From assembly GCF_009720385.1 (NCBI RefSeq), contig NZ_WARX01000014.1, positions 124,001-188,000 on the forward strand: 64,000 nucleotides of DNA. Direction: 5' to 3'. Below the pieces are notes generated by a model. That model was not told the origin of the DNA. It searched no databases and saw nothing but the letters and a program-made list of their open reading frames with translations. The stretch comes from Catellatospora vulcania (GTDB lineage Bacteria > Actinomycetota > Actinomycetes > Mycobacteriales > Micromonosporaceae). A program made the position numbers and the translations under genes. Positions 12,910 through 43,400 of the stretch are shown piece by piece (the first letter of the stretch is position 1; each line of letters starts with the position of its first letter).

Positions 12910-12934
12910 CGACACGCCCGACCGCGGGGGTCGG
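12910..12934 (+). promoter_or_regulatory. Shared 25-nt leader block, rpsL copy
   Basis: The block runs CGACACGCCCGACC followed by GCGGGGGTCGG. It is identical over all 25 bases to positions 17735-17759 before rpsJ and differs at two bases from 31074-31098 before infA. CCGACC and GGTCGG in it can form a tight stem. It is 129 bp upstream of the rpsL start. Confidence 0.75.
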
Positions 12935-13063
12935 CACTTGTCGCGGATCACTCCGAGACAGCGCCGATCGCAGCAGTTCGGGCCGCATTCGCGGCCACGG
13001 CCATACATAAGTTTCCGCGGCGGGAAGCCGCGGAGAGAAAGCAAAAGGGAGCGGAGAACACCG

Positions 13064-13447
13064 GTGCCCACAATCCAGCAGCTGGTCCGCAAGGGCCGCC
13101 AGGCGAAGACGAGCAAGACCAAGACGCCGGCGCTGAAGGGGAGCCCCCAGCGGCGCGGTGTGTGCACGCGTGTGTACACCACGACGCCCAAGAAGCCGAA
13201 CTCGGCACTGCGGAAGGTCGCTCGCGTCAAGCTGAGCAGCCAGATCGAGGTCACCGCGTACATCCCGGGTGTCGGCCACAATCTGCAGGAGCACTCGATC
13301 GTGCTCGTCCGCGGCGGCCGTGTGAAGGACCTGCCCGGCGTGCGCTACAAGATCATTCGTGGTTCGCTCGACACCCAGGGTGTCCGCAACCGCAAGCAGG
13401 CGCGTAGCCGCTACGGCGCGAAGCTGGTCAAGGAAGGGAAGAAGTAA
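13064..13447 (+). CDS. rpsL: 30S ribosomal protein S12
   Basis: This protein of 127 residues starts at GTG 13064 ((M)[20 protein letters not shown]); longer in-frame starts would run through the leader and are rejected. S12 sits at the decoding centre and controls accuracy. The two regions where streptomycin-resistance changes map are wild type: [14 protein letters not shown] and [12 protein letters not shown]. The C-terminus [12 protein letters not shown] is slightly longer than the usual 123-124 residues. The stop overlaps the rpsG start by one base (TAATG), so S12 and S7 synthesis are coupled. Confidence 0.98.
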
Positions 13448-13917
13448 TGCCGCGTAAGGGCCCCGCTCCTCGTCGACCGCTGGTCGCAGACCCGGTGTAC
13501 AACTCGCCGCTGGTCACCCAGCTGGTCAACAAGATCCTGCTGGCCGGCAAGCGCCAGCTGGCCGAGCGTGTCGTGTACGGCGCGCTCGAGGGCTGCCGCG
13601 AGAAGTCCGGCACCGACCCCGTGGTGACGCTCAAGCGCGCCATGGACAACGTCAAGCCGACCCTCGAGGTCCGCAGCCGCCGTGTCGGTGGCGCGACCTA
13701 CCAGGTGCCGGTCGAGGTCCGCCCGGCTCGGGCGACCACGCTCGGGCTGCGCTGGCTGGTGACGTACTCCCGCGCCCGTCGCGAGAAGACCATGATCGAG
13801 CGGCTCATGAACGAGCTGCTCGACGCCAGCAACGGTCTGGGCGCCGCTGTCAAGCGTCGCGAGGACACGCACAAGATGGCCGAGTCCAACAAGGCCTTCG
13901 CGCACTACCGCTGGTGA
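13447..13917 (+). CDS. rpsG: 30S ribosomal protein S7
   Basis: This protein of 156 residues starts [20 protein letters not shown] and ends FAHYRW, the standard actinobacterial form. S7 nucleates assembly of the 30S head and, in E. coli, represses the str operon. The [20 protein letters not shown] segment is the conserved RNA-binding part. The gene overlaps rpsL by one base and is followed 86 bp later by fusA, with a hairpin in between that may lower or regulate read-through. Confidence 0.98.
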
Positions 13918-13922
13918 ACCAC

Positions 13923-13957
13923 GTGGAGCCGGGCCGATCCTTCGGTTCCGGCTCCAC
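13923..13957 (+). other. Hairpin between rpsG and fusA
   Basis: GTGGAGCCGG (13923-13932) pairs with CCGGCTCCAC (13948-13957). CCTTGACTTTCC follows. It may be a partial terminator or processing site inside the str operon. A fusA-proximal promoter starting at the TTGACT hexamer (13962-13967) is possible. Confidence 0.65.
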
Positions 13958-14003
13958 AACCTTGACTTTCCGGGACTGAGTCCCACTCCGAAAGGATCGT
14001 GAA

Positions 14004-16100
<2,097 letters not shown>

Positions 16101-16108
16101 CCGCGGTG

Positions 16109-16137
16109 GTGAGGCCGGCGTTTCGCGCCGGCCTCAC
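16109..16137 (+). other. Hairpin between fusA and tuf
   Basis: GTGAGGCCGGCG (16109-16120) pairs perfectly with CGCCGGCCTCAC (16126-16137) around a 5-nt loop, 9 bp after the fusA stop. There is no U tract. It probably gives partial termination or protects the fusA 3' end. Confidence 0.75.
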
Positions 16138-16261
16138 TGCGGCTGAGTTCTTCACGGTCTCAGCACAGCAAGAAAGCGCCGGCGACCCCGGCGGGCAAAG
16201 GTCCTAAGCGCCGCCTCGGCGCCGTCGGGCGAACGAATCACCAGTCCACAGGAGGACACCA

Positions 16262-17455
16262 GTGGCGAAGGCGAAGTTCGAGCGGACTAAGCCGCACGTC
16301 AACATCGGCACCATTGGTCACATCGACCACGGTAAGACGACGCTGACGGCGGCCATCACTAAGGTCCTGCACGACAAGTTCCCGGCACTCAACCCGTACA
16401 CCCCTTTCGATGAGATCGACAAGGCGCCGGAGGAGAAGGCTCGTGGTATCACGATCTCCATCGCGCACGTCGAGTACCAGACCGAGAGCCGGCACTACGC
16501 GCACGTTGACTGCCCGGGTCACGCTGACTACATCAAGAACATGATCACCGGTGCCGCCCAGATGGACGGCGCGATCCTGGTGGTCGCCGCTACCGACGGC
16601 CCGATGCCGCAGACCCGCGAGCACGTGCTGCTCGCCCGTCAGGTCGGCGTGCCCTACATCGTCGTGGCGCTCAACAAGAGCGACATGGTTGACGATGAGG
16701 AGCTCCTGGAGCTGGTCGAGCTCGAGATCCGCGAGCTGCTGTCGAACCAGGAGTACCCGGGTGACGACCTGCCGGTCGTCCGGGTCTCCGCGCTGAAGGC
16801 GCTCGAGGGCGACCCGAAGTGGTCCGAGGCGCTCATGGGCCTGATGGACGCGGTCGACTCCGCGATCCCGCAGCCCGAGCGTGAGGTCGACAAGCCGTTC
16901 CTCATGCCGATCGAGGACGTTTTCACGATCACCGGTCGTGGCACCGTCGTCACCGGTCGCGCCGAGCGCGGCATCCTCAAGCCGAACGAGGAGGTCGAGA
17001 TCGTCGGTATTCGCGAGAAGTCGATGAAGACCACCTGCACCGGCATCGAGATGTTCCGCAAGCTGCTCGACGAGGCCCGCGCGGGTGAGAACGTCGGTCT
17101 GCTGCTGCGTGGCATCAAGCGCGAGGACGTCGAGCGCGGCATGGTCGTGGTCAAGCCCGGCACGACCACCCCGCACACGGAGTTCGAGGCGTCGGTCTAC
17201 ATCCTCTCCAAGGAGGAGGGTGGCCGTCACACCCCGTTCTTCCAGAACTACCGGCCGCAGTTCTACTTCCGCACCACCGACGTCACCGGTGTCGTCACGC
17301 TGCCCGAGGGCACCGAGATGGTCATGCCCGGCGACAACGTCGAGATGTCCGTGAAGCTCATCCAGCCGATCGCCATGGAGGAGACCCTCCGTTTCGCGAT
17401 CCGCGAGGGTGGCCGCACGGTCGGTGCCGGCCGAGTCACCAAGATCACCAAGTGA
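16262..17455 (+). CDS. tuf: Elongation factor Tu
   Basis: This protein of 397 residues starts at GTG 16262 with AGGAGGACACC just upstream. GTPase motifs: [10 protein letters not shown] at residues 19-28 (Ile replaces the commoner Val), [12 protein letters not shown], and NKSD in [10 protein letters not shown]. The C-terminal barrel domains end in [10 protein letters not shown]-Tu delivers aminoacyl-tRNA to the ribosome and is the target of kirromycin and GE2270-type antibiotics. It is the last str-operon gene and is followed at once by a strong terminator. Confidence 0.98.
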
Positions 17456-17460
17456 TCACC

Positions 17461-17492
17461 GCGGGCGCCCCGCTTTCGGGTGGGGCGCCCGC
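17461..17492 (+). terminator. Terminator of the str operon
   Basis: An 11-bp perfect stem GCGGGCGCCCC / GGGGCGCCCGC with a 10-nt loop starts 5 bp after the tuf stop. ACCTTTACAT follows. Confidence 0.85.
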
Positions 17493-17545
17493 ACCTTTAC
17501 ATGTACGCAGGCCGGGCCCGTTTTAGTGAGCCTAGGCACCCTGAT

Positions 17546-17575
17546 TTCACAATGGCGTACCCGATACGGCATAAT
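17546..17575 (+). promoter_or_regulatory. Probable promoter of the S10 operon
   Basis: TTCACA (17546-17551) and CATAAT (17570-17575) are spaced by 18 bp. CATAAT is the best -10 match in this 370-bp gap. The leader would be about 245 nt and would include the 25-nt shared block. Confidence 0.55.
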
Positions 17576-17734
17576 GAACAGGTTGCGTTGCGACCAGTCG
17601 CGCCCAGTGGGTGTGCCGTGTCGCGTGACGTGGGGGTCTTCGGGCCTCTGACGTGAAGCTCCTGTGATCGGGCTTGATGCCCGCTGAGCCAAGGCAAATG
17701 ACCTTTTAATAGGGAATCAGTCTGGTTCAGCGCG

Positions 17735-17759
17735 CGACACGCCCGACCGCGGGGGTCGG
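17735..17759 (+). promoter_or_regulatory. Shared 25-nt leader block, rpsJ copy
   Basis: This is identical in all 25 positions to 12910-12934 before rpsL (CGACACGCCCGACC then GCGGGGGTCGG). It ends 66 bp upstream of the rpsJ start codon. The inner CCGACC...GGTCGG can form a stem. No such block is seen before rplJ, rpoB, secY or rplM. Confidence 0.75.
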
Positions 17760-17825
17760 ACAGGGGGCAGGCCCCACCGTCTGCCGCCGCAGGTAGCGGC
17801 TTGAGAGAAGGAAACAGAAGCCACC

Positions 17826-18134
17826 ATGGCGGGACAGAAGATCCGCATCCGGCTCAAGGCCTACGACCACGAGGTCGTCGACTCCTCGGCACGGAAGATC
17901 GTCGAGACGGTGACCCGTACGGGTGCTCAGGTCGCAGGGCCGGTGCCACTGCCCACGGAGATCAACCGTTTCTGCGTGATCCGTTCGCCGCACAAGTACA
18001 AGGACTCGCGCGAGCACTTCGAGATGCGCACGCACAAGCGTCTGATCGACATCATCGACCCGACCCCGAAGACGGTCGACTCGCTCATGCGACTCGATCT
18101 GCCGGCTGGCGTCGACATCGAGATCAAGCTGTAG
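17826..18134 (+). CDS. rpsJ: 30S ribosomal protein S10
   Basis: This protein of 102 residues, starting [20 protein letters not shown], matches the family length. It contains [20 protein letters not shown] and [16 protein letters not shown], the loop that reaches the 30S A-site region. S10 also acts with NusB in rRNA antitermination. It is the first gene of the 11-gene S10 operon and has the ribosome-binding site AGAAGGAAAC. rplC follows after 11 bp. Confidence 0.98.
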
Positions 18135-18145
18135 GGACCGGACTG

Positions 18146-18808
18146 ATGGACAGGCAAGTTAAGGGCATCCTGGGCGCCAAGCTCGGCATGACTCAGGTCT
18201 GGGACAACAACAAAGTCGTCCCCGTGACCGTGGTGCAGGCCGGCCCGTGCGTCGTCACCCAGGTTCGTACCACTGAGAAGGACGGCTACGAGGCCGTCCA
18301 GCTGGCTTTCGGCGCGATCAACCCGCGCAAGGTGAGCCAGCCCAAGGCGGGCCACTTCGCCAAGGCGAACGTCGCGCCCCGTCGGCACATCGTCGAGCTG
18401 CGCACCACCGACGCCGGCTCGTACGAGCTCGGCCAGGAGGTCACCGTCTCCACGTTCGCGGCCGGTCAGGCCATCGACGTGACGGGCAAGACCAAGGGCA
18501 AGGGTTTCGCCGGTGTCATGAAGCGCCACGGCTTCCACGGCCTCAAGGCCAGCCACGGCGTCGAGCGCAAGCACCGCTCGCCCGGTTCGATCGGCGCTTG
18601 CGCCACGCCGGGTCGCGTGTTCAAGGGCGTCCGCATGGCCGGCCGCATGGGTGGCGTGCGCTACACCGCGCCCGGCCTCACCGTGCACGCCATCGACACC
18701 GAGAACAACCTGCTGCTCGTGAAGGGCGCCATCCCGGGCCCCAAGGGTGCGCTGGTGCTCGTTCGTAGCGCCGCGAAGACGAAGAAGAAGGGTGGTGCCT
18801 CGAAGTGA
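18146..18808 (+). CDS. rplC: 50S ribosomal protein L3
   Basis: This protein of 220 residues starts at ATG 18146 ([20 protein letters not shown]); the frame is open further upstream but that part overlaps rpsJ. The conserved loop that reaches the peptidyl-transferase centre is seen as HGSHSPGSIG-like [19 protein letters not shown]. The highly basic C-terminus ends [10 protein letters not shown]. The stop overlaps the GTG start of rplD by 4 bp. Confidence 0.97.
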
Positions 18809-19449
18809 CCACGGTTGACGTGATCAGTGCTGAGGGCGCCAAGGCCGGCTCCGTCGAGCTGCCCGCCGAGATCTTCGATGTGCAGGCGAACATCTCGCTG
18901 ATGCACCAGGTCGTGGTGGCCCAGCTGGCCGCCGCGCGCCAGGGCACGCACAAGACGAAGCGTCGCGGCGAGGTCGCCGGTGGCGGCAAGAAGCCGTACA
19001 AGCAGAAGGGCACCGGTCGCGCCCGTCAGGGCTCGATCCGCGCCCCGCAGTTCGCCGGCGGTGGCGTCGTCCACGGCCCGCAGCCGCGTGACTACAGCCA
19101 GCGGACCCCGAAGAAGATGAAGGCCGCCGCCCTGCGCGGTGCCCTGTCGGACCGGGCCCGCAACGGCCTGCTGCACGTGGTCGACGCGTTCGTGACCGGC
19201 GAGAAGCCGTCGACGAAGGCCGCCCTGGCCACGATCCAGAAGGTCGCGGGCGACGCCCCGCGCGTGCTGGTCGTGCTCGGCGCCAACGACGAGGTCAACT
19301 GGGTGAGCCTGCGCAACGTGCCGCAGGTGCACCTGATCGAGGCCGGGCAGCTCAACACGTACGACGTGCTCGTCAGCGACGCGGTGGTCTTCACCACCGA
19401 GGCGCTCGAGGAGTTCCTGGGCGTGCCCGCTGAGGAGGGTTCCAAGTGA
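18805..19449 (+). CDS. rplD: 50S ribosomal protein L4
   Basis: This protein of 214 residues starts at GTG 18805, overlapping rplC (GTGA). The long internal loop [20 protein letters not shown] with [14 protein letters not shown] lines the exit tunnel, and its residues are those where macrolide-resistance changes are known in other bacteria. In E. coli L4 represses the S10 operon by binding its leader; whether this happens here is not known. It overlaps rplW by 4 bp. Confidence 0.97.
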
Positions 19450-19748
19450 CGACGATTGCCGACCCGCGCGACATCATCGTCGCTCCGGTGGTCTCGGAGA
19501 AGAGCTACGGCGAGCTCAACCGCAACTGGTACACCTTCCTGGTGCACCCGGACGCGAACAAGACCGAAATCAAGATCGCTATTCAGCAGATCTTCAATGT
19601 TCGGGTGCTGACGGTGAACACGCTCAACCGCGAGGGCAAGCGCAAGCGCACCCGCACCGGCTGGGGTCAGCGCAAGGCGACGAAGCGCGCGATGGTGAAG
19701 CTCGCCGAAGGCGACCGCATCGAAGCCTTCGGCGGACCGGTGAGCTGA
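19446..19748 (+). CDS. rplW: 50S ribosomal protein L23
   Basis: This protein of 100 residues starts at GTG 19446, coupled to rplD. It contains [21 protein letters not shown] and [20 protein letters not shown], the standard L23 core. L23 sits at the tunnel exit and is the docking point for trigger factor and SRP. The protein ends [10 protein letters not shown], and rplB follows after 13 bp. Confidence 0.97.
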
Positions 19749-19761
19749 GGGGTATAAGACA

Positions 19762-20601
19762 ATGGGTATCCGTAAGTACAAGCCGACGACGCCCGGTCGC
19801 CGTGGCTCCAGCGTCGCCGACTTCACCGAGGTCACCCGGTCGACGCCGGAGAAGTCGCTGGTCGTTCCGCTGCCGAAGAAGGGCGGTCGTAACGTTCACG
19901 GCCGCATCACCACGCGGCACCAGGGCGGCGGCCACAAGCGTCAGTACCGGCTGATCGACTTCACTCGGGTGGGCAAGGACGGCGTGCCGGCCAAGGTCGC
20001 GCACATCGAGTACGACCCCAACCGCACCGCGCGCATCGCGCTGCTGCACTACGTCGACGGCGAGAAGCGCTACATCATCGCGCCGAAGGACCTGAAGCAG
20101 GGCGACGCGGTCGAGTCGGGCCCCGGGGCCGACATCAAGCCGGGCAACAACCTGCCGCTGCGCAACATCCCGGTCGGTACGACCGTGCACTGCGTGGAGC
20201 TGCGTCCGGGTGGCGGCGCCAAGCTGGCCCGCTCGGCCGGCGTCGGCATCCAGCTGCTGGGCCGCGAGGAGGACTACGCCACGCTGCGTATGCCTTCTGG
20301 CGAGATCCGCAAGGTGGACGTCCGCTGCCGCGCGACGGTCGGCGAGATCGGCAACGCCGAGCAGTCGAACATCAACTGGGGCAAGGCTGGTCGTATGCGG
20401 TGGAAGGGCAAGCGCCCGACCGTCCGTGGTGTCGCCATGAACCCGGTCGACCACCCGCACGGTGGTGGTGAGGGCAAGACCTCCGGTGGTCGCCACCCGG
20501 TGAACCCGGCTGGTAAGCCCGAGGGTCGTACCCGCCGCAAGGGCCAGGCGAGCGACAAGCTGATCGTCCGCCGCCGCTACGCCACCCGCAAGCGCGGGTA
20601 A
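19762..20601 (+). CDS. rplB: 50S ribosomal protein L2
   Basis: This protein of 279 residues starts [20 protein letters not shown]. It carries the conserved [17 protein letters not shown] stretch, whose His residue lies close to the peptidyl-transferase centre, and the basic end [11 protein letters not shown]2 is a primary 23S rRNA binder needed for subunit association. Spacing on both sides is short (13 and 16 bp), consistent with one transcript. Confidence 0.98.
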
Positions 20602-20617
20602 TAGGGAGAGCTGACAG

Positions 20618-20899
20618 ATGCCTCGCAGCCTGAAGAAGGGCCCCTTCATCGACGACCACCTGCTCAAGAAGGTGGAAGTGCAGAACGAAAAGGGCACCAA
20701 GAACGTCATCAAGACCTGGTCGCGGCGTTCGACGATCATCCCGGACATGCTGGGCCACACGATCGCCGTGCACGACGGGCGCAAGCACGTCCCGGTGTTC
20801 GTGTCGGAGGCGATGGTCGGGCACAAGCTCGGCGAGTTCGCGCTGACCCGCACGTTCAAGGGTCACGAGAAGGACGACCGGAAGAGTCGCCGTCGCTGA
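20618..20899 (+). CDS. rpsS: 30S ribosomal protein S19
   Basis: This protein of 93 residues starts [20 protein letters not shown]. It contains the conserved [24 protein letters not shown] and the [16 protein letters not shown] segment that binds 16S rRNA in the 30S head with S13. Family length is normal. A 34-bp gap with GATTTAGGGGAAAC leads to rplV. Confidence 0.98.
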
Positions 20900-20933
20900 C
20901 GGCGGACCGTAATAAGGATTTAGGGGAAACACG

Positions 20934-21407
20934 ATGCCTACGAATGACGCGCAGGCCGCGCCGGGCGCCCGTGCGGTCGCCCGCCACGTGCGCCTGTCCG
21001 CCAGCAAGGCGCGCCGTGTGGTCAACCTCGTCCGCGGTCTGCCCGCGAAGGAGGCACTGACGGTGCTCCAGTTCGCTCCGCAGGCGGCTAGCGAGCCGGT
21101 CTACAAGGTGCTGGCCAGCGCTATCGCCAACGCTGAGAACAACGAGCGTCTCGACCCGGACGCGCTGCTGGTCAGCGCTGCCTACGTGGACGAGGGCCCG
21201 ACGCTGAAGCGGTTCCGGCCGCGGGCGCAGGGCCGGGCTTACCGGATCCGCAAGCGCACCTGCCACATCACCGTCGAGGTGGAGGCAGTCGCGCCGAAGG
21301 CTCCGGTCCGCAAGGCCACCGCCGCCGCCAAGGCGACGCCGGCCAAGGCCACCAAGGCCGCAGCGAAGCCCGAGGTTGAGGCCGCCGAGCAGGAGGAGAC
21401 CAAGTAA
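20934..21407 (+). CDS. rplV: 50S ribosomal protein L22, C-terminally extended
   Basis: This protein of 157 residues has the L22 core at residues 10-125 ([20 protein letters not shown] ... [20 protein letters not shown]). The beta-hairpin loop with [15 protein letters not shown] lines the exit tunnel. A low-complexity Ala/Lys/Glu tail of about 30 residues follows; such tails are common in high-GC actinobacteria and vary in length. The stop shares one base with the rpsC start. Confidence 0.97.
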
Positions 21408-22237: not shown

Positions 22238-22240
22238 ACA

Positions 22241-22666
22241 ATGCTGATGCCGCGTAAGCCTCCGAATGGCTTCCGCAAGCCGCACCACCCCGACCGTTCC
22301 GGTCGGAGCAAGGGCGGCAACCGGGTGGTGTTCGGCGAGTTCGGCATCCAGGCGCTCGAGCCGGCGTACGTCACCAACCGGCAGATCGAGTCGGCGCGTA
22401 TCGCCATGACCCGTCACATCAAGCGTGGTGGCAAGGTCTGGATCACGGTCTTCCCGGACCAGGCCCTGACCAAGAAGCCCGCCGAGACCCGCATGGGTTC
22501 CGGTAAGGGTTCGCCCGAGTGGTGGGTGGCGAACGTCAAGCCGGGACGCGTTCTCTTCGAGATGGCGTTCCCGAACGAGGAGATTGCTCGTGAGGCCATG
22601 CGCCGCGCGATCCACAAGCTCCCGATGAAGTGCCGAATCGTGAAGCGCGAAGTGGGTGAGGCGTGA
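22241..22666 (+). CDS. rplP: 50S ribosomal protein L16
   Basis: This protein of 141 residues starts [20 protein letters not shown]. It includes the conserved [37 protein letters not shown] and the [11 protein letters not shown] end. L16 organises the A-site finger region and is the target of avilamycin/evernimicin-type resistance in other species. The chosen ATG at 22241 matches the usual MLxPRK N-terminus. The stop overlaps the rpmC start. Confidence 0.97.
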
Positions 22667-22896
22667 TGGCAGCCGGTACCAAGGCAGCCGAGCTGCGCGA
22701 GAGTTCCGCTGAGGAACTGGTCGCGAAGCTGCGGGAGGCCAAGGCGGAGCTGTTCAACCTCCGCGTCCAGGGTGCGACCGGGCAGCTCGACAACAACCGT
22801 CGGCTGGACGTCGTCCGTCGGGAGATCGCCCGGATCTACACGATCATGCGCGAGCGTGAGCTTGGGCTCTCTGCCGCGCCTACTGAGGTGGCGTAG
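22666..22896 (+). CDS. rpmC: 50S ribosomal protein L29
   Basis: This protein of 76 residues starts at ATG 22666 ([20 protein letters not shown]), which shares its A with the rplP stop (TGATG). A GTG one codon upstream would add only a Met. Helical L29 signatures [20 protein letters not shown] and [17 protein letters not shown] are present. L29 forms part of the trigger-factor docking site with L23. Confidence 0.96.
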
Positions 22897-22901
22897 GGAA
22901 C

Positions 22902-23180
22902 ATGAGCGAGACCAACGAGAACGCAGTCGACCGGAACCGGCGTAAGGTACGCGAGGGCCTGGTCGTCAGCGACAAGATGGACAAGACCGTCGTCGTGGCG
23001 GTCGAGGACCGGGTCAAGCACTCGCTGTACGGCAAGGTTCTGCGCCGTAGCAGCAAGCTGAAGGCGCACGACGAGCAGAACGCGTGCGGCATCGGTGACC
23101 GGGTGCTGCTCATGGAGACCCGTCCGCTGTCCGCCACCAAGCGGTGGCGGGTCGTGGAGATCCTCGAGAAGGCCAAGTGA
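22902..23180 (+). CDS. rpsQ: 30S ribosomal protein S17
   Basis: This protein of 92 residues has the S17 OB-fold signature [20 protein letters not shown] and [20 protein letters not shown]. The first 15 residues ([15 protein letters not shown]) are an actinobacterial extension. It is the last gene of the S10 cluster; a 170-bp gap with several hairpins separates it from rplN. Confidence 0.97.
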
Positions 23181-23181
23181 C

Positions 23182-23218
23182 CCTGCCTCCGGCAGGTTCG
23201 CCGGCCGCCTAGCGGCCG
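23182..23218 (+). other. Tandem hairpins between rpsQ and rplN
   Basis: Two compact stems follow each other: CCTGCC-TCC-GGCAGG (23182-23196) and CGGCCGC-CTA-GCGGCCG (23202-23218). The rest of the 170-bp gap is G/C-rich with further pairing potential. It marks the junction between S10 and spc genes and may be a processing or attenuation site. No clear promoter was seen. Confidence 0.6.
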
Positions 23219-23350
23219 AAGATCAGATAGCCGGCCGGGGCGCCCTGAGGGGCGTTCCGGGCGGTTCGAGTTCCGCCAGGCTCCGCCCGCACAGTACGGG
23301 TCCCCCCGCAACCGGGCGGGCGGAGAACCGGCAGACATACAGGAGTTGAC

Positions 23351-23719
23351 GTGATCCAGCAGGAGTCGCGACTGCGAGTCGCCGACAACACGGGTGCCCG
23401 GGAGATTCTGTGCATCCGCGTTCTCGGTGGTTCGGGTCGGCGCTACGCGAGCATCGGCGACGTCATCGTGGCCACCGTCAAGGACGCCATCCCCGGTGCC
23501 GGTGTGAAGAAGGGTGACGTCGTCAAGGCGGTCATCGTTCGCACCGTCAAGGAGCGGCGCCGTCCGGACGGCTCGTACATCCGCTTCGACGAGAACGCCG
23601 CCGTCATCATCAAGGACGGTGGCGACCCGCGCGGTACCCGCATCTTCGGCCCGGTTGGCCGTGAGCTGCGGGACAAGCGCTTCATGAAGATCATCAGCCT
23701 TGCCCCGGAGGTGTTGTGA
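23351..23719 (+). CDS. rplN: 50S ribosomal protein L14
   Basis: This protein of 122 residues starts at GTG 23351 ([20 protein letters not shown]) after AGGAGTTGAC. The family signature [17 protein letters not shown] followed by [20 protein letters not shown] is complete. L14 contacts the 30S subunit at bridge B8 and is the binding site of the silencing factor RsfS. It is the first gene of the spc operon and overlaps or abuts rplX. Confidence 0.98.
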
Positions 23720-23721
23720 CC

Positions 23722-24033
23722 ATGAAGGTCAAGAAGGGCGACAAGGTCAAGGTCATCGCCGGCCGGGACAAGGGCAAGGAGGGTACGGTCATCGCGGCCT
23801 ACCCCCGGACCGAGAAGATCCTGGTCGAAGGCGTTAACCGGATCACCAAGCACGAGAAGATCCGTACCACCCAGCGTGGCGCCAAGACCGGCGGCATCAT
23901 CACCCAGGAGGCGCCGATCCACGTCTCCAACGTGATGGTCGTCGAGGACGGCCAGCCCGTCCGGGTCGGCTACAAGATCGACGAGAACGGCGTGAAGACT
24001 CGCGTCTCCCGTCGCACCGGCAAGGAGCTGTGA
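23722..24033 (+). CDS. rplX: 50S ribosomal protein L24
   Basis: This protein of 103 residues starts at ATG 23722 ([20 protein letters not shown]), which fits the family's usual M-K-x-K-K start; a GTG at 23716 overlapping the rplN stop is a possible alternative adding two residues. The KOW motif is in [21 protein letters not shown]24 is an early assembly protein at the tunnel exit. The stop shares one base with rplE. Confidence 0.96.
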
Positions 24034-24602
24034 TGACGACGGCGACCGAGACCAAGACGCTGCCGCGTCTCAAGGAGCGTTACCGCGCCGAGGTTGTCGG
24101 CCAGCTGCGCGAGCAGTTCGGCTTCGGCAACCCGATGCAGGTGCCGGGCCTGGTGAAGATCGTGGTCAACATGGGCGTCGGCGAGGCGGCCCGTGACTCG
24201 AAGAAGATCGACGGTGCGGTCAAGGACCTCACCGCGATCACCGGCCAGAAGCCGCTGATCCGCAAGGCCACCAAGTCCATCGCGCAGTTCAAGCTGCGTG
24301 AGGGCATGCCGATCGGCGCGAAGGTGACCCTGCGCGGCGACCGGATGTGGGAGTTCCTGGACCGGCTGCTGTCCATCGCGCTGCCGCGTATCCGCGACTT
24401 CCGCGGTCTGGACGGGCGCAAGCTCGACGGTCACGGCAACTACACCTTCGGTCTGACCGAGCAGTCGGTCTTCCACGAGATCGACCAGGACCGGATCGAT
24501 GCGGTCCGCGGCATGGACATCACGCTGGTGACCACTGCCAAGACCGACGATGAGGGCCGGGCGCTGCTCAAGCTCCTGGGCTTCCCGTTCAAGGAGAACT
24601 GA
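24033..24602 (+). CDS. rplE: 50S ribosomal protein L5
   Basis: This protein of 189 residues starts at ATG 24033 ([20 protein letters not shown]). It contains [40 protein letters not shown] and the FPHEID-like [19 protein letters not shown]5 binds 5S rRNA and contacts P-site tRNA. It shares one base with the rplX stop and precedes rpsN by 4 bp. Confidence 0.97.
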
Positions 24603-24606
24603 GCAC

Positions 24607-24792
24607 ATGGCGAAGAAGGCGCTGATCATCAAGGCTGCGGCCAAGCCGAAGTTCGCGGTGCGCGCGTACACCCGGTGCCAGAAGTGCGGTCGGCCGAAGG
24701 CCGTCTACCGCAAGTTCGGGCTCTGCCGGGTCTGTGTTCGGGAGATGGCCCACCGCGGTGAGCTTCCCGGCGTGTCCAAGGCTTCCTGGTAA
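24607..24792 (+). CDS. rpsN: 30S ribosomal protein S14, zinc-binding type
   Basis: This short protein of 61 residues starts [20 protein letters not shown]. The zinc ribbon [20 protein letters not shown] (two CxxC pairs) is intact, so this is the Zn-dependent S14 and not the longer zinc-free paralogue that many actinobacteria keep elsewhere under Zur control. The start is fixed by the short 4-bp gap from rplE. A hairpin (CCCGGTG-TGA-CACCGGG, 24819-24835) lies between it and rpsH. Confidence 0.96.
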
Positions 24793-24862
24793 ATCCAAGG
24801 CTTCCCCTTCGCCGTAGGCCCGGTGTGACACCGGGAACCGCGGCGAGAAAGGCTGATAAACA

Positions 24863-25270
24863 ATGACGATGACCGACCCGATTGCAGACATGCTCACGCG
24901 TCTGCGCAACGCCAACCAGGCGTACCACGACCGGGTGGCGATGCCCTACTCGAAGATCAAGGCGAACGTCGCCGAGGTTCTCAAGGCCGAGGGCTACATC
25001 GCCGCCTGGGCTGTCGAGGAGCCCGCCGAGGGTGCCGTCGGCAAGAGCCTGATCGTCGAACTGAAGTTCGGCCCGAACCGGGAGCGGAGCCTGGCCGGCA
25101 TCCGGCGTGTCTCCAAGCCCGGCCTGCGGGTTTACGCCAAGTCCCCGGAGCTGCCGCGTGTTCTCGGCGGTCTGGGTGTGGCGATTATTTCGACGTCTCA
25201 GGGGCTGCTCACCGACCGGCAGGCCCGTAAGCGCGGGGTGGGCGGGGAAGTCCTCGCCTACGTCTGGTGA
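24863..25270 (+). CDS. rpsH: 30S ribosomal protein S8
   Basis: This protein of 135 residues starts [20 protein letters not shown]. The family's [20 protein letters not shown] and the end [11 protein letters not shown] are typical. S8 binds helix 21 of 16S rRNA and in E. coli represses the spc operon by binding near rplE. The ribosome-binding site is GAGAAAGG. ATG 24869 is an equally plausible start two codons in. Confidence 0.97.
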
Positions 25271-25282
25271 GGAAGGTCTGCA

Positions 25283-25834
25283 ATGTCGCGAATCGGACGT
25301 AAGCCGATCCCGGTGCCTTCCGGCGTCGAGATCACCATCGATGGCCAGACCATCAAGGTCAAGGGCCCCAAGGGCGAGCTTCAGCACACGCTGAGCGAGC
25401 CGATCATCGCCGAGCGCGGTGAGAGCGGCGAGCTGCTCGTCACCCGCCCGAACGACGAGCGTCGTGCCAAGGAGCTGCACGGTCTCTCGCGTACCCTGGT
25501 CGCCAACATGATCGTCGGCGTCACCGAGGGCTACAAGAAGAGCCTGGAGATCAACGGCACCGGTTACCGTGTCACCGCCAAGGGTTCGGAGCTCGAGTTC
25601 GCGCTCGGCTTCTCGCACCCCGTCGTGGTGGCGCCGCCGGCCGGGATCACCTTCGCGGTGGAGCGGCCGACGCTGTTCCACATCTCCGGCATCGACAAGC
25701 AGCTTGTCGGTGAGATCGCCGCCAACATCCGGAAGATCCGCCCGCCGGAGCCCTACAAGGGCAAGGGCGTCAAGTACCAGGGCGAGGTCATCCGCCGCAA
25801 GGCCGGTAAGGCTGGAAAGGCAGGTAAGAAGTGA
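25283..25834 (+). CDS. rplF: 50S ribosomal protein L6
   Basis: This protein of 183 residues starts [20 protein letters not shown]. It contains two repeated L6 domains and the C-terminal signature [20 protein letters not shown]6 lies near the sarcin-ricin loop and the factor-binding site. The Lys/Gly-rich end ([12 protein letters not shown]) and the 4-bp overlap with rplR complete the picture. Confidence 0.98.
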
Positions 25835-26220
25835 CCGCCACGCTGCTCAAGCGCCGCAACGGCGTCGCCGCCAAGCGGGCCGTCGGCAAGGCGCGTCGGC
25901 ACTTCCGCATCCGCCGGAACCTCAGCGGCACCGCTGAGCGCCCCCGTCTGGTCGTCACCCGCTCGCTGCGCCACATCTGGGTTCAGATCGTGGACGACAC
26001 CAAGGGTCACACCGTGGTGTCCGCCTCGAGCATGGACGCCTCGATCAAGGGCGCCGAGGGCGACAAGAGCGCCATCGCCGGCAAGGTGGGCGCTCTGCTC
26101 GCCGACCGGGCGAAGGCCGCCGGTATCACCAAGGTCGTCTTCGACCGCGGTGGCAACCGCTACGCGGGCCGCATCGCGGCTCTGGCGGACGCCGCACGCG
26201 GTGCTGGACTCGAGTTCTAG
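25831..26220 (+). CDS. rplR: 50S ribosomal protein L18
   Basis: This protein of 129 residues starts at GTG 25831, overlapping rplF. It contains [20 protein letters not shown], which begins the conserved 5S-binding domain, and [21 protein letters not shown]18 with L5 forms the 5S rRNA particle of the central protuberance. Family length is normal. Confidence 0.97.
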
Positions 26221-26237
26221 GAAAGGTGGCTGGGATA

Positions 26238-26864
26238 ATGCCAGGACCACAACGCCGGGGCACGGGTTCCGGTAGCAGTGAGGGCGGCGACCGCGGTGGT
26301 CGCGAGCGCCGTGGCCGCGGCGATGGCCGTGGCAACGCGCCGGTCGAGAAGACCCCGCATCTCGAGCGGGTCGTCACGATCAACCGTGTTGCCAAGGTCG
26401 TCAAGGGCGGTCGGCGCTTCAGCTTCACCGCGCTCGTGATCGTCGGCGACGGCGAGGGCAACGTGGGCGTCGGCTACGGCAAGGCCAAGGAGGTGCCCGC
26501 GGCGATCGCCAAGGGTGTCGAGGAGGCCAAGAAGCACTTCTTCCGGGTTCCCCGGATCGGCTCCACCATCCCGCACCCCGTGCAGGGTGAGGCGGCGGCC
26601 GGTGTGGTGCTGCTCAAGCCGGCCAGCGCCGGTACCGGTGTCATCGCCGGCGGCCCGGTGCGTGCCGTGCTGGAGTGCGTGGGCATCCACGACGTGCTCT
26701 CGAAGAGCCTCGGCTCCTCGAACCCGATCAACATCGTGCACGCCACGGTCGCCGCGCTGAAGATGCTGGAGTCCCCGGAGGCCATCGCGGCTCGCCGTGG
26801 GCTGCCGGTCGAGGACGTCGCGCCGGCCGCGCTGCTGGCCGCGCGTGCGGGAGCGGGTGCGTAA
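26238..26864 (+). CDS. rpsE: 30S ribosomal protein S5
   Basis: This protein of 208 residues begins at ATG 26238 ([20 protein letters not shown]); an upstream in-frame GTG (26226) overlaps the GAAAGG ribosome-binding site and is rejected. A Gly/Arg-rich N-terminal tail of about 40 residues precedes the double-stranded-RNA-binding fold with [20 protein letters not shown] and [21 protein letters not shown]5 shapes the mRNA entry site and is a site of spectinomycin-resistance changes in other bacteria. Confidence 0.97.
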
Positions 26865-26866
26865 CC

Positions 26867-27049
26867 ATGGCACGTTTGAAGGTCACCCAGTTGCGGTCCG
26901 ACATCGGGCGCAAGCGCAACCAGCGCGAGTCGCTGCGTTCGCTCGGTCTCAAGCGGATCAACGACGTGGTGGTGAAAGAGGACCGTCCCGAGATTCGGGG
27001 CATGATCTTCGCGGTCAGCCACCTCGTGAAGGTCGAGGAGGTTGAGTAA
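26867..27049 (+). CDS. rpmD: 50S ribosomal protein L30
   Basis: This protein of 60 residues starts [20 protein letters not shown] and contains [20 protein letters not shown], the standard short bacterial L30. The ATG is 2 bp after the rpsE stop and the stop shares one base with rplO (TAATG). The longer in-frame reading upstream overlaps rpsE and is not used. Confidence 0.96.
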
Positions 27050-27492
27050 TGACGATCAAGATCCACCACCTCCGCCCGGCGCCCGGTGCGAAGACCGCCA
27101 AGACCCGCGTGGGTCGTGGTGAGGGTTCCAAGGGCAAGACCGCCGGTCGCGGTACCAAGGGTACGAAGGCCCGCTACCAGGTGAAGCCGTCGTTTGAGGG
27201 TGGGCAGATGCCTATCCACATGCGGCTTCCGAAGATGAAGGGCTTCCGGAACAAGTTCAAGGTCGTGTTCCAGGTCGTGAACCTGGACCGGCTCGCCGAG
27301 CTGTTCCCCAACGGCGGCCAGGTCGGCCCGCTGGAGCTGGCCGAGGCCGGTGCCGTCCGCAAGGGCCACCCGGTCAAGGTGCTCGGCACCGGCGAGCTGG
27401 GCGGCGTGAAGCTCCAGGTGACGGCGCACGGTTTCAGCGCCTCCGCCAAGGAGAAGATCGCAGCCGCCGGCGGCTCCGTGACGGAGCTGTAA
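27049..27492 (+). CDS. rplO: 50S ribosomal protein L15
   Basis: This protein of 147 residues starts [20 protein letters not shown]. The Gly/Lys-rich N-terminal extension [20 protein letters not shown] penetrates 23S rRNA. The C-terminal part holds [20 protein letters not shown] and FSASAKEKI. It is the last ribosomal gene of the spc cluster. A 14-bp perfect hairpin follows, separating it from secY, which here has its own leader. Confidence 0.98.
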
Positions 27493-27506
27493 GCGACAGT
27501 CGCAGA

Positions 27507-27540
27507 CGTGGCGCCCGACCGACCTTGGTCGGGCGCCACG
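27507..27540 (+). terminator. Strong hairpin after rplO
   Basis: CGTGGCGCCCGACC (27507-27520) pairs perfectly with GGTCGGGCGCCACG (27527-27540) around a 6-nt loop. A U tract is missing. In this lineage such stems commonly end transcripts. The remaining part of the 313-bp gap before secY holds a weak promoter candidate (CTGACC-N18-TAGAGT, 27637-27666). Confidence 0.75.
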
Positions 27541-27805
27541 CTCGGCTTCCGGGTTCTGTGGGCAAGATGCAGGTCGTTGCCACTGGGCACGAGCGCTGCC
27601 AAGGCCTAGGCTGGCACAGATATGTGCCGCGCAGACCTGACCGTTGAGGGTCGGGACTGTTAGAGTCCGATCCCAGCTACGCGTAAACTGCGCGTGGCGC
27701 GGTGAAGGCCGACCGTAATGGTCACGGCTCAGCCGAACCAAGTCATCTGTCCCGCCCCTTACACGACAGCCACCGGCCCCCGGTGCCGCGCGCAGGAGGA
27801 AGAAG

Positions 27806-29134
27806 TTGCTCTCCGCTTTTGTCAGTGCGTTCAAGACGCCTGACCTGCGCAAGAAGATTCTGTTCACGCTCGGGATCATCGCGCTCTATCGCCTCGGTGC
27901 CACGCTGCCCAGCCCCGGTGTCTCGTACGGGAACGTGCAGAAGTGCATCACCGCCATGGAGTCGGGTGCCGAGAGCGGCGTCTTCACGCTCCTTAACCTC
28001 TTCTCCGGCGGCGCTCTGCTGTCCCTGTCGGTCTTCGCGCTCGGCATCATGCCGTACATCACGGCGTCGATCATCCTGCAGCTGCTCACCGTGGTCATCC
28101 CGCGCCTGGAGCAGCTCCGCAAGGAGGGCCAGTCCGGCCAGGCGAAGATCACCCAGTACACCCGCTACCTGACCCTGGGCCTGGCCGTCCTGCAGTCCTC
28201 GGCCTTCGTGGCCCTGGCCCGCTCCGGCCAGCTGTTCCAGGGCGCGTGCGACGCGTTCCCGATCGTGCCGAACACCCAGATGCCGCAGTGGGTCACGCTG
28301 ACCGCGCTCGTCGTCACCATGACCGCCGGCACCGGCGTCGTGATGTGGCTCGGTGAGCTCATCACCGACCGCGGCGTGGGCAACGGCATGTCCGTCCTGA
28401 TCTTCACCTCCATCGCCGCCCGCCTCCCCAGTGAGGGCTGGCAGCTGAAGGAGTCCAAGGGCTGGTGGGGTTTCGTCGGCGTGCTCGCGCTCGTCGTCGT
28501 GGTCATCGCGCTGGTGGTGTACATCGAGCAGGCGCAGCGCCGCATCCCGGTGCAGTACGCCAAGCGCATGGTCGGCCGCCGTATGTACGGCGGAACGTCG
28601 ACCTACATCCCGCTGAAGGTCAACCAGGCGGGTGTCATCCCGGTCATCTTCGCGTCGTCGCTGCTCTACCTGCCCACGCTGGCTCTGCAGTTCATGAACC
28701 AGAACGACCCGGGCAAGGTCCAGATCTGGCTGCGCGACTACCTGACCGACCCCAGCAAGTGGAGCTACATCCTGCTCTACTTCCTGATGATCATCTTCTT
28801 CACGTACTTCTACGTCTCGATCACGTTCAACCCGACCGAGATCGCGGACAACATGAAGAAGTACGGCGGCTTCGTGCCGGGTATCCGGCCGGGCAAGCCC
28901 ACCGCCGACTACCTCGACTTCATCCTGAGCCGGATCACCCTGCCGGGCGCGTTCTACCTCGGCATCATCGCGATCCTGCCGAACATGTTCTTCATCTGGC
29001 TGGACTCCCAGGCCTACCAGAACTTCCCCTTCGGCGGCACCGCGGTGCTGATCATGGTGGGTGTGGGTCTGGAGACCGTCAAGCAGATCGAGAGCCAGCT
29101 CATGCAGCGCAGCTACGAGGGATTCCTTCGATGA
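27806..29134 (+). CDS. secY: Preprotein translocase subunit SecY
   Basis: This is the channel subunit of the Sec translocase in the plasma membrane, 442 residues with about ten transmembrane helices. The start is TTG 27806 ((M)LSAFVSAFKTPDLRKKILFT), preceded by AGGAGGA. The plug and lateral-gate regions are intact, with GGALLSLSVFALGIMPYITA and the cytosolic loop RRIPVQYAKRMVGRRMYGG. The end is [12 protein letters not shown]. The stop overlaps a 24-codon ORF that leads into adk, so secY, the small ORF, adk and probably map are one unit. Secreted proteins such as the chitinase at 40963 depend on it. Confidence 0.98.
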   Translation: MLSAFVSAFKTPDLRKKILFTLGIIALYRLGATLPSPGVSYGNVQKCITAMESGAESGVFTLLNLFSGGALLSLSVFALGIMPYITASIILQLLTVVIPRLEQLRKEGQSGQAKITQYTRYLTLGLAVLQSSAFVALARSGQLFQGACDAFPIVPNTQMPQWVTLTALVVTMTAGTGVVMWLGELITDRGVGNGMSVLIFTSIAARLPSEGWQLKESKGWWGFVGVLALVVVVIALVVYIEQAQRRIPVQYAKRMVGRRMYGGTSTYIPLKVNQAGVIPVIFASSLLYLPTLALQFMNQNDPGKVQIWLRDYLTDPSKWSYILLYFLMIIFFTYFYVSITFNPTEIADNMKKYGGFVPGIRPGKPTADYLDFILSRITLPGAFYLGIIAILPNMFFIWLDSQAYQNFPFGGTAVLIMVGVGLETVKQIESQLMQRSYEGFLR

Positions 29135-29205
29135 GCCAGCGGGCGCAGCGGATCGGCGGCGCGTTCTCGCGCCGCCGGTTCGCCGGTTTTAGTGAGGTGT
29201 CGTGA
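29131..29205 (+). CDS. 24-residue bridging ORF between secY and adk
   Basis: ATG 29131 overlaps the secY stop (ATGA). The frame reads [20 protein letters not shown] then SEVS and ends with a TGA that shares its last base with the adk start (TGATG). The peptide is strongly basic and Ser/Arg-rich. Both junctions are the kind used for translational coupling, so ribosomes could pass from secY through this ORF to adk. Whether the peptide itself has a role is unknown; it may only carry ribosomes across a 70-bp gap. It is too short for a family call. Confidence 0.45.
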
Positions 29206-29858
29206 TGAGGCTGGTGCTGGTGGGTCCGCCCGGCGCGGGCAAGGGGACGCAGGCGGAGTTCATCGCCTCGCACCTGTCCGTGCCGAAGATCTCGACGGGT
29301 GACATCTTCCGGGCCAACGTCTCGCAGGGCACCCCGCTGGGCCTGGAGGCCAAGCGCTACATGGACTCGGGCGGCCTGGTGCCGGACGAGGTCACCATCA
29401 ACATGGTGCGCGGCCGGCTGGCCGAGGCCGACGCCGCCGACGGCTTCCTGCTCGACGGGTTCCCGCGCACCGTGCCACAGGCCGTGGCGCTGGACAAGAT
29501 GCTCGCCGACACGGGCGCGAACCTGGACCTGGTGCTGGAGCTCATCGTCGACAACGACGAGGTCATCCGGCGCCTGTCCGGTCGGCGCACCTGCCATGGC
29601 TGCGGCAAGATCTGGCACATCGAGTTCGACGCGGTGAGCCGCGAGAACCTGTGCGACCGCTGCGGCGGCGAGCTCTACCAGCGCGACGACGACAAGGCCG
29701 AGACGATCGCGGAGCGGCTCAAGGTGTACGCCCGCGACACCGCCCCCCTGGTCGACCACTACGGCGCACAGGGCCGCCTGGTCGGGATCGACGCCACCGG
29801 CCCGGTGGAGGACGTCACCGAGCGGGCCATCAACGAGCTGCGCTCGTTCAGCGCGTAA
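29205..29858 (+). CDS. adk: Adenylate kinase
   Basis: This enzyme catalyses ATP + AMP to 2 ADP in the cytosol. It has 217 residues, starting at ATG 29205 ([19 protein letters not shown]); the GTG one codon upstream is an alternative. The P-loop GPPGAGKGT is at residues 7-15, DGFPRT follows, and the LID domain is the long form with four cysteines (Cys130, 133, 150 and 153), so it should bind structural zinc. It lies between secY and map, the arrangement usual in actinobacteria. Confidence 0.98.
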
Positions 29859-30095
29859 CATTGCCTGGCGCTCGGCGGTGGGGCCGGCGCCTGCGGGAAC
29901 AGCCACTGCACTCGCTGGACGCGGCCGACCGGTGACGGTCGGGCCCGCGCTCGGGCGACGGCATGTTGTCGCCGTCCACAGGACGGCGGACGGCTCGCCC
30001 CGCGGACGTGCGGCGACGAAAGCGCCGGACGGTCCCCGCCGGGCAGGAAACGCCCGGTCGGACCGGGCCGGCGGGGAAAGGCAACGGCCGAGCAC
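29859..30095. other. Intergenic region adk-map
   Basis: These 237 bp of GC-rich sequence carry no convincing ORF, repeat or strong terminator. A CGGGCG-rich stretch at 30015-30075 can form weak stems. A map promoter could lie here but I see no clear hexamer pair. Confidence 0.5.
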
Positions 30096-30920
30096 ATGGG
30101 CATCGAGATCAAGACGCCGGAGCAGCTGCACCTGATGCGCGCTGCGGGGCTGGTGGTGGCCGCGGCGCTGGCGGCGGCCCGTGAGGCGGTCAAGCCCGGG
30201 GTCAGCACCGCTGAGCTGGACGCCGTCGCCGAGGACGTGATCCGGTCGCACGGGGCTGTCCCGTCGTTCAAGGGCTACCACGGCTTCCCCGGCACCATCT
30301 GCTCGTCGGTGAACGAGCAGATCGTGCACACCATCCCCAACCCCAAGCACGTGCTGGCCGAGGGCGACCTGATCTCGATCGACTGCGGGGCGATCCTGAA
30401 CGGCTGGCACGGCGACGCGGCGATCACCGTCGGGGTCGGCGAGACCCGGCCCGACCTGCTGCGTATGGCGGAGGTGGCCGAGGACTCGATGTGGGCCGGC
30501 ATCGCCGCCGCCGCGCGCGGGGTGCGTTCTGGCACCGGCCGGCTGACCGACATCTCGTGGGCAGTGGAATCGGCGGTGCGCAAGGCGCCCCGCAAGTACG
30601 GCATCGTCAAGGGGTACGGCGGCCACGGCATCGGCACCGCCATGCACCAGGATCCGCACATCCACAACCACGGCCGCCCCGGGCGCGGCCCGCAGCTGAT
30701 CCCCGGCATGGCGCTGGCCATCGAACCGATGATCACCATGGGCTCGGCCCGCACCGCGGAACTCAACGACGGCTGGACTGTGGTGACCACCGACGGCTCG
30801 CACGCCGCCCACGTCGAACACTCGATCGGCCTGTTCGAGGACGGGGTATGGGTCCTCACCGCCGTCGACGGCGGCCGAGCCCGCCTCGGCGACCTCCTCA
30901 CCTCCGCCGCCACCGCCTGA
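30096..30920 (+). CDS. map: Methionine aminopeptidase, type I
   Basis: This enzyme removes the initiator Met from nascent proteins. It has 274 residues and starts MGIEIKTPEQLHLMRAAGLV. The type I metal-site stretches are seen in order: ISIDCGAILNGWHGDAAIT (two Asp), GYGGHGIGTAMHQDPHIHN (His), AIEPMIT (Glu) and VEHSIGLFEDG (Glu). There is no N-terminal SH3-binding or zinc-finger extension, so it is the short housekeeping form. It lies downstream of adk with a gap, and a perfect-palindrome hairpin follows. Confidence 0.97.
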   Translation: MGIEIKTPEQLHLMRAAGLVVAAALAAAREAVKPGVSTAELDAVAEDVIRSHGAVPSFKGYHGFPGTICSSVNEQIVHTIPNPKHVLAEGDLISIDCGAILNGWHGDAAITVGVGETRPDLLRMAEVAEDSMWAGIAAAARGVRSGTGRLTDISWAVESAVRKAPRKYGIVKGYGGHGIGTAMHQDPHIHNHGRPGRGPQLIPGMALAIEPMITMGSARTAELNDGWTVVTTDGSHAAHVEHSIGLFEDGVWVLTAVDGGRARLGDLLTSAATA

Positions 30921-30969
30921 CCTCCCAGCCCCCGCCCCGCCCGCCCCGCCCGCCCGCCCCGCACGGCCC

Positions 30970-31032
30970 CGCAACTCTTAAAGAGTTGCGGGCTCGTAGG
31001 GCGTCTGTAGGCGCGACTCTTTAAGAGTTGCG
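30970..31032. repeat. Inverted repeat, family B, copy 1
   Basis: Arms 30970-30990 and 31012-31032 are 21 bp with one mismatch; the left arm, CGCAACTCTT-A-AAGAGTTGCG, is itself a perfect palindrome. The outer end CGCAACTCTTAAAGA is identical to the element after thiC at 48577. It lies 49 bp after the map stop and may act as a terminator. Confidence 0.85.
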
Positions 31033-31073
31033 CCCGGAGACGGGGCCGGTCGGGGAGTGGCGAGTGTGTGGTC

Positions 31074-31098
31074 CGACACTCCCGGCCGCGGGGGTCGG
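31074..31098 (+). promoter_or_regulatory. Shared 25-nt leader block, infA copy
   Basis: CGACACTCCCGGCC followed by GCGGGGGTCGG matches the rpsL and rpsJ leader blocks at 23 of 25 positions. It lies 183 bp upstream of infA. Here a GTGTCG at 31110-31115 could also pair with the CGACAC at its 5' end. Confidence 0.65.
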
Positions 31099-43393: not shown

Positions 43394-43400
43394 GGCCGCG

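What the first reader, a model, noticed from the sequence alone, without database searches (positions are those of the whole stretch)
12910..31098. One 25-nt block shared by the rpsL, rpsJ and infA leaders
Positions 12910-12934 and 17735-17759 are identical over 25 bases, and 31074-31098 matches at 23 of 25. They lie upstream of three separate translation operons (str, S10, alpha) at different distances (129, 66 and 183 bp), so this is not simple duplication of a neighbouring gene start. I do not recall a named RNA family for it. The inner CCGACC/GGTCGG can pair. A common regulator, RNA or DNA based, for ribosome synthesis is a reasonable guess.
Basis: seen in the sequence. Interest (0 to 1): 0.78.

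Follow-up and report, generated by a model that had tools for sequence, protein, structure and literature searches.

The report
WhiA binding sites at ribosomal operons
The repeated 25-letter block is very probably a landing site on the DNA for WhiA, a bacterial gene regulator, placed in front of genes that build the ribosome; it is strongly conserved across a large bacterial class, but a shorter form of it was already described in front of one of these operons.

Summary
In detail: two identical 25-mers and one 23/25 match precede rpsL, rpsJ and infA, and the 8.83-Mb genome has no further site within 3 mismatches. The block is conserved in front of rpsL and/or rpsJ in much of the class, on the sense strand. 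It has two parts: GACACRCC, then GG(G/A)(T/C)CGG after a spacer of 9 nt. GACACRCC fits the published WhiA site GAYACRCY of the rpsJ operon (Fisunov 2024). A WhiA ChIP peak lies 75 bp before rpsJ in Streptomyces venezuelae (Bush 2013); the block centre lies 74-93 bp before rpsJ in 7 named Streptomyces. The genome carries a three-domain whiA. The proposed hairpin shows no covariation, and the infA copy lies upstream of its apparent promoter. So this is most likely a two-part WhiA DNA operator, not an RNA element. Known: WhiA at rpsJ and infA, and the core at rpsJ in most whiA-bearing species examined. Apparently unreported in what I could read: the rpsL site, the two-part 25-bp form, the genus-level infA copy. 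Against: rpsL is not in Bush's selected target table, and named Streptomyces infA leaders lack the block although WhiA binds there. The sign of regulation is unsettled.

The parts
12910..12934 (+). Block 1, rpsL leader: WhiA-type core GACACGCC (12911-12918) and downstream half GGGTCGG (12928-12934)
   Evidence: conserved in relatives with sharp borders
17735..17759 (+). Block 2, rpsJ leader, identical to block 1; core GACACGCC (17736-17743), downstream half 17753-17759
   Evidence: block centre 79 nt before rpsJ, against 75 bp for the WhiA ChIP peak at S. venezuelae rpsJ (Bush 2013 Table 1, passage)
31074..31098 (+). Block 3, infA upstream region, 23/25; core GACACTCC (7 of 8 letters of GAYACRCY)
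   Evidence: seen in 10 of 11 genomes of the genus (6 read, 4 inferred from the spacing to rpsJ; the list was cut), and upstream of infA only in the window among 53 pooled infA leaders
12734..12763 (+). Likely rpsL promoter TTGACC-N18-TACTCT; block 1 would begin near +140
   Evidence: conserved in relatives; not found by the strict sigma-70 scan; no transcript start was mapped
17546..17575 (+). Likely rpsJ promoter TTCACA-N18-CATAAT; block 2 would begin near +150
   Evidence: (10 of 12, shuffles mean 0.0), conserved within the genus
31107..31136 (+). Likely infA promoter TTGGTG-N18-TAGACT; block 3 lies upstream, near -69 to -45
   Evidence: (region conserved in six genus members); not found by the strict scan
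13064..13438 (+). rpsL (ribosomal protein S12)
   Evidence: PF00164
17826..18134 (+). rpsJ (ribosomal protein S10)
   Evidence: PF00338
31282..31503 (+). infA (IF-1)
   Evidence: PF01176

Best explanation
The block is a two-part DNA operator for WhiA, a protein with LAGLIDADG homing-endonuclease-like domains and a C-terminal HTH domain. Shown here: conservation, position, orientation, mostly fixed spacing, lack of hairpin covariation, presence of whiA. Inferred: the HTH domain reads GACACRCC and the endonuclease-like domain touches the half GG(G/A)(T/C)CGG that follows a 9-nt spacer, by analogy with core and auxiliary motif in Mycoplasma. Inferred: at rpsL and rpsJ WhiA sits about 140-155 bp downstream of the transcript start, in the leader, and modulates output of the str and S10 operons; at infA it sits just upstream of the promoter. 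Direction not settled: repression in Mycoplasma, lower expression in a Streptomyces whiA mutant. Regulation by growth or energy (ATP) state is taken over from the Mycoplasma work and untested here.
For: Core: among 77 sites in rpsL/rpsJ/infA leaders (picked for at most 4 mismatches to the window block, which inflates invariance) ACAC and CCCG are invariant and the G before ACAC is 76 of 77; 2 of the 3 window copies fit GAYACRCY fully. Published: WhiA binds GAYACRCY at the rpsJ operon, with EMSA, knockdown and reporter data in Mycoplasma gallisepticum; the core is said to occur upstream of rpsJ in the majority of whiA-bearing species, Actinobacteria being among the groups named (PMC11701221: abstract, passages, sections 18, 20, 24). 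In Mollicutes too the site lies downstream of the transcript start (about 22-40 nt). In vivo: WhiA ChIP peaks 75 bp before rpsJ and 173 bp before infA in S. venezuelae (PMC3781837 Table 1, passage); block centre 74 (S. narbonensis) to 93 bp before rpsJ in 7 of 7 named Streptomyces. Geometry: of 131 GACAC[AGT]CC cores in rpsL/rpsJ leaders 101 have the downstream half after exactly 9 nt. Position: profile score above 18 in 57 of 61 rpsL and 64 of 96 rpsJ leaders, 0 of 96 rplC, 0 of 64 rpsG, 0 of 37 rplN, 0 of 37 rpsH, 0 antisense. whiA with three Pfam domains is in this genome. A tuberculosis network paper lists WhiA among eight regulators of rpsJ-rpsQ and neighbouring genes (PMC6868718, passage).
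Against: rpsL is not in Bush 2013 Table 1 ('selected' targets), although 7 of 7 named Streptomyces have the block centred 62-63 bp before rpsL; the full table was not available. infA is a strong WhiA ChIP target in S. venezuelae, yet 7 of 7 named Streptomyces have no block (best 9 or more mismatches in 500 nt) and no GACAC within 320 bp of infA, so the block is not needed for WhiA there. rpsH, another ChIP target, has the block in 0 of 37 pooled leaders. The infA copy has T where GAYACRCY has R. Presence of whiA says nothing about the block: 54 of 54 genomes had it, including 30 chosen for lacking a strict match. The downstream half differs in sequence from the Mycoplasma auxiliary motif (GTTGT), and 28 of 131 cores lack it. 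No binding was measured.
Confidence: 0.82

Rival explanations
1. An RNA leader element: the block acts in the mRNA, as a hairpin or protein-binding site for r-protein feedback or antitermination.
For: At rpsL and rpsJ it lies in the likely transcribed leader, never found antisense. A loose, uncalibrated promoter pattern matched in 36 of 39 rpsL and 7 of 37 rpsJ leaders, in all 43 only upstream of the block. A 6-bp hairpin can be drawn in the rpsL and rpsJ copies.
Against: No covariation, two pairs broken in 16-19 of 43 sequences; no Rfam match; the infA copy lies upstream of its apparent promoter; WhiA evidence from other groups fits the same letters.
Confidence: 0.1
2. An operator for another DNA-binding protein or a pausing element read by a NusG-type factor, with the GACAC match a coincidence.
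For: The site is longer (about 28 nt) and more invariant than the published GACAC sites; rpsL is not a tabulated WhiA target; the transcribed position recalls ops-like elements (recalled, not tested).
Against: Would need coincidence of the 8-letter core, gene (rpsJ) and ChIP position with WhiA.
Confidence: 0.07
3. A short conserved leader peptide (one frame reads D-T-P-D-R-G-G-R).
For: Two variable positions (7 and 13) are third codon positions in that frame; in the window's rpsL leader this frame is open upstream and holds a GTG.
Against: Other variable positions (15, 18, 21) are second codon positions and the flanks are not conserved; in the window's rpsJ leader no ATG, GTG or TTG lies between the last in-frame stop and the block.
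Confidence: 0.01

Closest known systems
WhiA site GAYACRCY + auxiliary motif at the rpsJ operon (Mollicutes; Fisunov 2024, PMC11701221)
   Same: Core letters, gene, order core-then-auxiliary, position downstream of the transcript start
   Different: Downstream half is GG(G/A)(T/C)CGG instead of GTTGT; likely about 150 nt from the start instead of 22-40; extra copies at rpsL and, in this genus, infA
WhiA GACAC sites of Streptomyces venezuelae (Bush 2013, PMC3781837)
   Same: GACAC; rpsJ and infA are ChIP targets at similar distances (75 and 173 bp)
   Different: MEME there found only GACAC, at about 70% of targets; no downstream half was reported in the passages seen; the named Streptomyces infA leaders have no block
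Ribosomal leader RNAs (e.g. L31 and L17 leaders of Actinobacteria, PMC7247131)
   Same: Associated with r-protein genes
   Different: Those are structured RNAs; the block shows no supported pairing; the part of the table I saw (cut at its end) lists no actinobacterial S12 or S10 leader

Membership tests
WhiA operator | GACAC core | tested here: met
   all 3 window copies; 77 of 77 ACAC, 76 of 77 with preceding G among the selected sites
WhiA operator | 8-letter core GAYACRCY | tested here: met
   met at rpsL and rpsJ; the infA copy has 7 of 8 letters (GACACTCC)
WhiA operator | second contact motif downstream of the core | tested here: inconclusive
   a conserved half follows after exactly 9 nt in 101 of 131 cores, but its sequence differs from Mollicutes GTTGT and contact by WhiA is not shown
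WhiA operator | whiA gene in the genome | tested here: met
   G000 C12, three Pfam domains
WhiA operator | WhiA occupancy in vivo at the block | tested here: inconclusive
   rpsJ: published peak 75 bp, block centre 74-93 bp in 7 named Streptomyces, S. venezuelae itself not among them; rpsL not in the selected table
WhiA operator | WhiA-dependent expression through the site | not testable with these tools
   -
r-protein leader RNA | conserved secondary structure with covariation | tested here: not met
r-protein leader RNA | match to a known RNA family | tested here: not met

The most novel reading that the evidence does not exclude
The most conserved WhiA target in the whole class is not a sporulation or division promoter but a 25-bp two-part operator inside the leaders of the str and S10 operons. 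WhiA would then be first of all a regulator of ribosome synthesis (perhaps reading ATP, as proposed in Mycoplasma), with the Streptomyces sporulation regulon a later addition using the bare GACAC core plus WhiB.
Probability: 0.4. Interest if true: 0.72.

Novelty: new member of a known kind. Interest (0 to 1): 0.5.

Why it matters
In S. venezuelae about 15,000 GACAC pentamers exist and only a small part is bound; the authors say further specificity determinants must exist (PMC3781837, PMC4850268, passages). A long two-part site with fixed spacing is a testable candidate for one, and it points to a shared role of WhiA in ribosome synthesis outside sporulation.

Tried and rejected
Hairpin in the block: rejected. 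First hairpin pattern searched with a wrong loop length: useless. Rfam: nothing. Co-occurrence of block and whiA: no power, whiA in 54 of 54. Extra site between whiA and gap in this genome: among 13 other whiA loci 10 gave a gap hit; within 500 bp upstream of gap one of the 10 has a GATACGCC and four have a bare GACAC, none the longer form. Weak profile hits outside the class: 18 of 221 genomes, best E 6.4e-4; the six loci held have none of seven translation genes within the fetched 1.5 kb on either side. Seven weak extra hits inside the class were fetched: five, from one family of the order (f8; G021, G034, G043, G060, G067), precede rpsL; two (G297, G275) lie in long reading frames and look unrelated. 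'Lacking' genomes: of 30 without a strict match, 27 gave an rpsJ locus; 8 of these do have the block at rpsJ, 3 have only the core GACACGCCCGGG, 1 has a core match that looks like part of a tRNA gene (own reading), 15 have no GAYACRCY within 400 nt; rpsL was not checked in these.

Papers: seen as search listings only unless named with passages or sections. PMC11701221: abstract, passages, sections 18, 20, 24. PMC3781837: passages and section 13. PMC4850268, PMC7247131, PMC8470358, PMC2904383, PMC3087709, PMC8653842, PMC6868718, PMC8044303: passages. Kaiser and Stoddard 2011 only as quoted there. No supplement could be read, so Fisunov's figure S3B (which may show the actinobacterial motif) and Bush's full target table are unseen. 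'Unreported' rests on searches; seven papers hold both WhiA and rpsL and, apart from PMC8653842 (passages on another question), were seen as listings only.

Full report
Observation. The 25-mer at 12910 and 17735 is identical, that at 31074 differs at two positions. The genome of 8.83 Mb has exactly these three sites at up to three mismatches, none on the other strand, and none for the reversed control. A profile of the block gives the same three at E<0.01 in this genome.

Spread. In a sample of 200 genomes of the order, 150 have at least one match at up to three mismatches; the reversed control matches in 11 of 200 genomes (control rows counted by eye). Of the 30 matches whose surroundings came with that search, 28 precede rpsL and 1 precedes rpsJ; one is unrelated. 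A wider class sample gave 282 of 296, but with a looser pattern that also hits by chance, as its control columns show. With the profile, in a phylum sample of 246 genomes, 24 class members have strong hits (E 4.7e-5 or better) and one listed class member has none; 184 further genomes without a match were not listed, and I take them to lie outside the class because the list runs by kinship. Outside the class 18 of 221 have a hit, best E 6.4e-4, which looks like chance; this search used stricter filters that lose weak matches. So the two-part form seems to be a feature of this class within the phylum; other phyla were not searched.

Context. I pooled the window, 59 regions chosen because they held a match (one useless 20-base stretch dropped) and 40 regions chosen by infA; one genome (G004) occurs twice. 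Counting leaders with at least 250 nt and a profile score above 18 within 350 nt: block in 57 of 61 rpsL, 64 of 96 rpsJ, 1 of 53 infA (the window's own), 0 of 64 rpsG, 0 of 96 rplC, 0 of 37 rplN, 0 of 37 rpsH, never antisense. Of 61 regions with both rpsL and rpsJ leaders, 26 have both blocks, 31 only rpsL, 4 only rpsJ, none neither. The choice of regions inflates these rates; the contrast between genes does not depend on it.

Anatomy. Over 77 sites, picked for at most four mismatches to the window block, the conserved stretch is about GNGCGACACRCCCGACCKCGKGGRYCGG, with sharp borders. ACAC and CCCG are invariant in this set. In 101 of 131 GACAC[AGT]CC cores of rpsL/rpsJ leaders, GG(G/A)(T/C)CG follows after exactly 9 nt; 28 lack it within 26 nt, 2 have another spacing. 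A fixed spacing without base-pair covariation suits one protein touching two DNA patches.

Not a hairpin. On 43 distinct sequences the six-pair helix CCGACC/GGTCGG has 82.2% of cells paired, no more than shuffles (429 of 500 at least as high), and covariation at the shuffled level; two inner pairs are open in 19 and 16 sequences. It does pair more than versions slid by 1 to 3 columns, which is expected of a structure drawn from these sequences.

Position. A conserved TTGACC-TACTCT lies upstream of the rpsL block in this genus and relatives, and TTCACA-N18-CATAAT upstream of the rpsJ block, so both blocks are probably transcribed, near +140 and +150. The strict scan finds only the rpsJ promoter. 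At infA the order is reversed: the block comes first and a TTGGTG-N18-TAGACT, in a region conserved in six genus members, follows. No transcript start was mapped. A block that occurs on either side of a promoter suits DNA binding better than RNA.

Identification. GACAC is the binding motif of WhiA in Streptomyces, and infA and rpsJ were among its ChIP-seq targets, with peaks 173 and 75 bp from the start codons; these targets were lower in the whiA mutant (PMC3781837, passages and section 13). In Mycoplasma gallisepticum WhiA binds GAYACRCY downstream of the rpsJ transcript start and represses the operon; both core and auxiliary motif are needed; ATP releases the auxiliary contact (PMC11701221). 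The same paper says that the core occurs upstream of rpsJ in the majority of species that kept whiA, Actinobacteria being among the groups it names, and that some clades have their own downstream motif. The window's rpsJ and rpsL blocks contain GACACGCC. I reached seven named Streptomyces through a published primer stretch; S. venezuelae itself was not among the 59 records listed. Their rpsJ block centres lie 74 (S. narbonensis), 86, 89, 89, 90, 91 and 93 bp before the start, against 75 bp for the S. venezuelae peak.

What does not fit. Those seven Streptomyces have no block and no GACAC within 320 bp of infA, though WhiA binds infA in S. venezuelae; rpsL, which has the block, is not in the printed table; rpsH, which is in it, has no block in 37 pooled leaders. 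The genus-level infA copy (10 of 11 genomes, a cut list; six read directly, four placed by their spacing to rpsJ) departs from GAYACRCY by one letter. whiA is everywhere, so gene and site cannot be correlated. Some genera lack the block at rpsJ or keep only the core.

Mechanism. Most likely WhiA anchors on the core and its endonuclease-like domain on the downstream half, early in the transcribed part of the str and S10 operons. In Mycoplasma the authors conclude that WhiA acts on initiation rather than elongation, since a site about a kilobase from the promoter had only a very weak effect; with the block some 150 bp downstream here, either could apply. Direction remains open.

Status. The rpsJ site is already in print as a core motif; infA is a known WhiA target in Streptomyces. 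The rpsL site and the class-wide two-part form are additions as far as the searches show; supplements were not readable.

Noticed in passing
L151:5691-5940 (+) and the same place in L141-L152: In family f31, genus g76 (Streptomyces by leader motifs shared with named Streptomyces) the rpsJ leader upstream of the block forms a conserved structured RNA candidate of about 155 columns: 49 pairs, 98.4% of cells paired, covariation score above all 500 shuffles, but pairs changed on both sides reached by 32 of 500, and only 12 related sequences; no Rfam match at E<=1. Possibly an unlisted S10-operon leader, separate from the block.
   Followed up: partly
L309, L312, L316 (genus g114 of family f46): rpsJ leaders keep the core GACACGCCCGGG but not the usual downstream half: natural variants for testing the role of the second half.
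   Followed up: partly
L128, between whiA and gap (about 1069-1051 on the minus strand): GCGACACGCCCGAAGCGGG between whiA and gap in the window's genome; no such longer form upstream of gap in the 10 other loci with a gap hit.
   Followed up: partly
window 30969-31033: Two palindromic stretches of the type GCAACTCTTAAAGAGTTGC just upstream of the infA block; similar ones in some genus members.
   Followed up: no
window 11898-12042 and 12381-12522: Tandem repeats of 36/72 bp and of 47 bp (3.1 copies) upstream of rpsL.
   Followed up: no
window 43295-43407: TPP riboswitch, RF00059, 65.4 bits.
   Followed up: no
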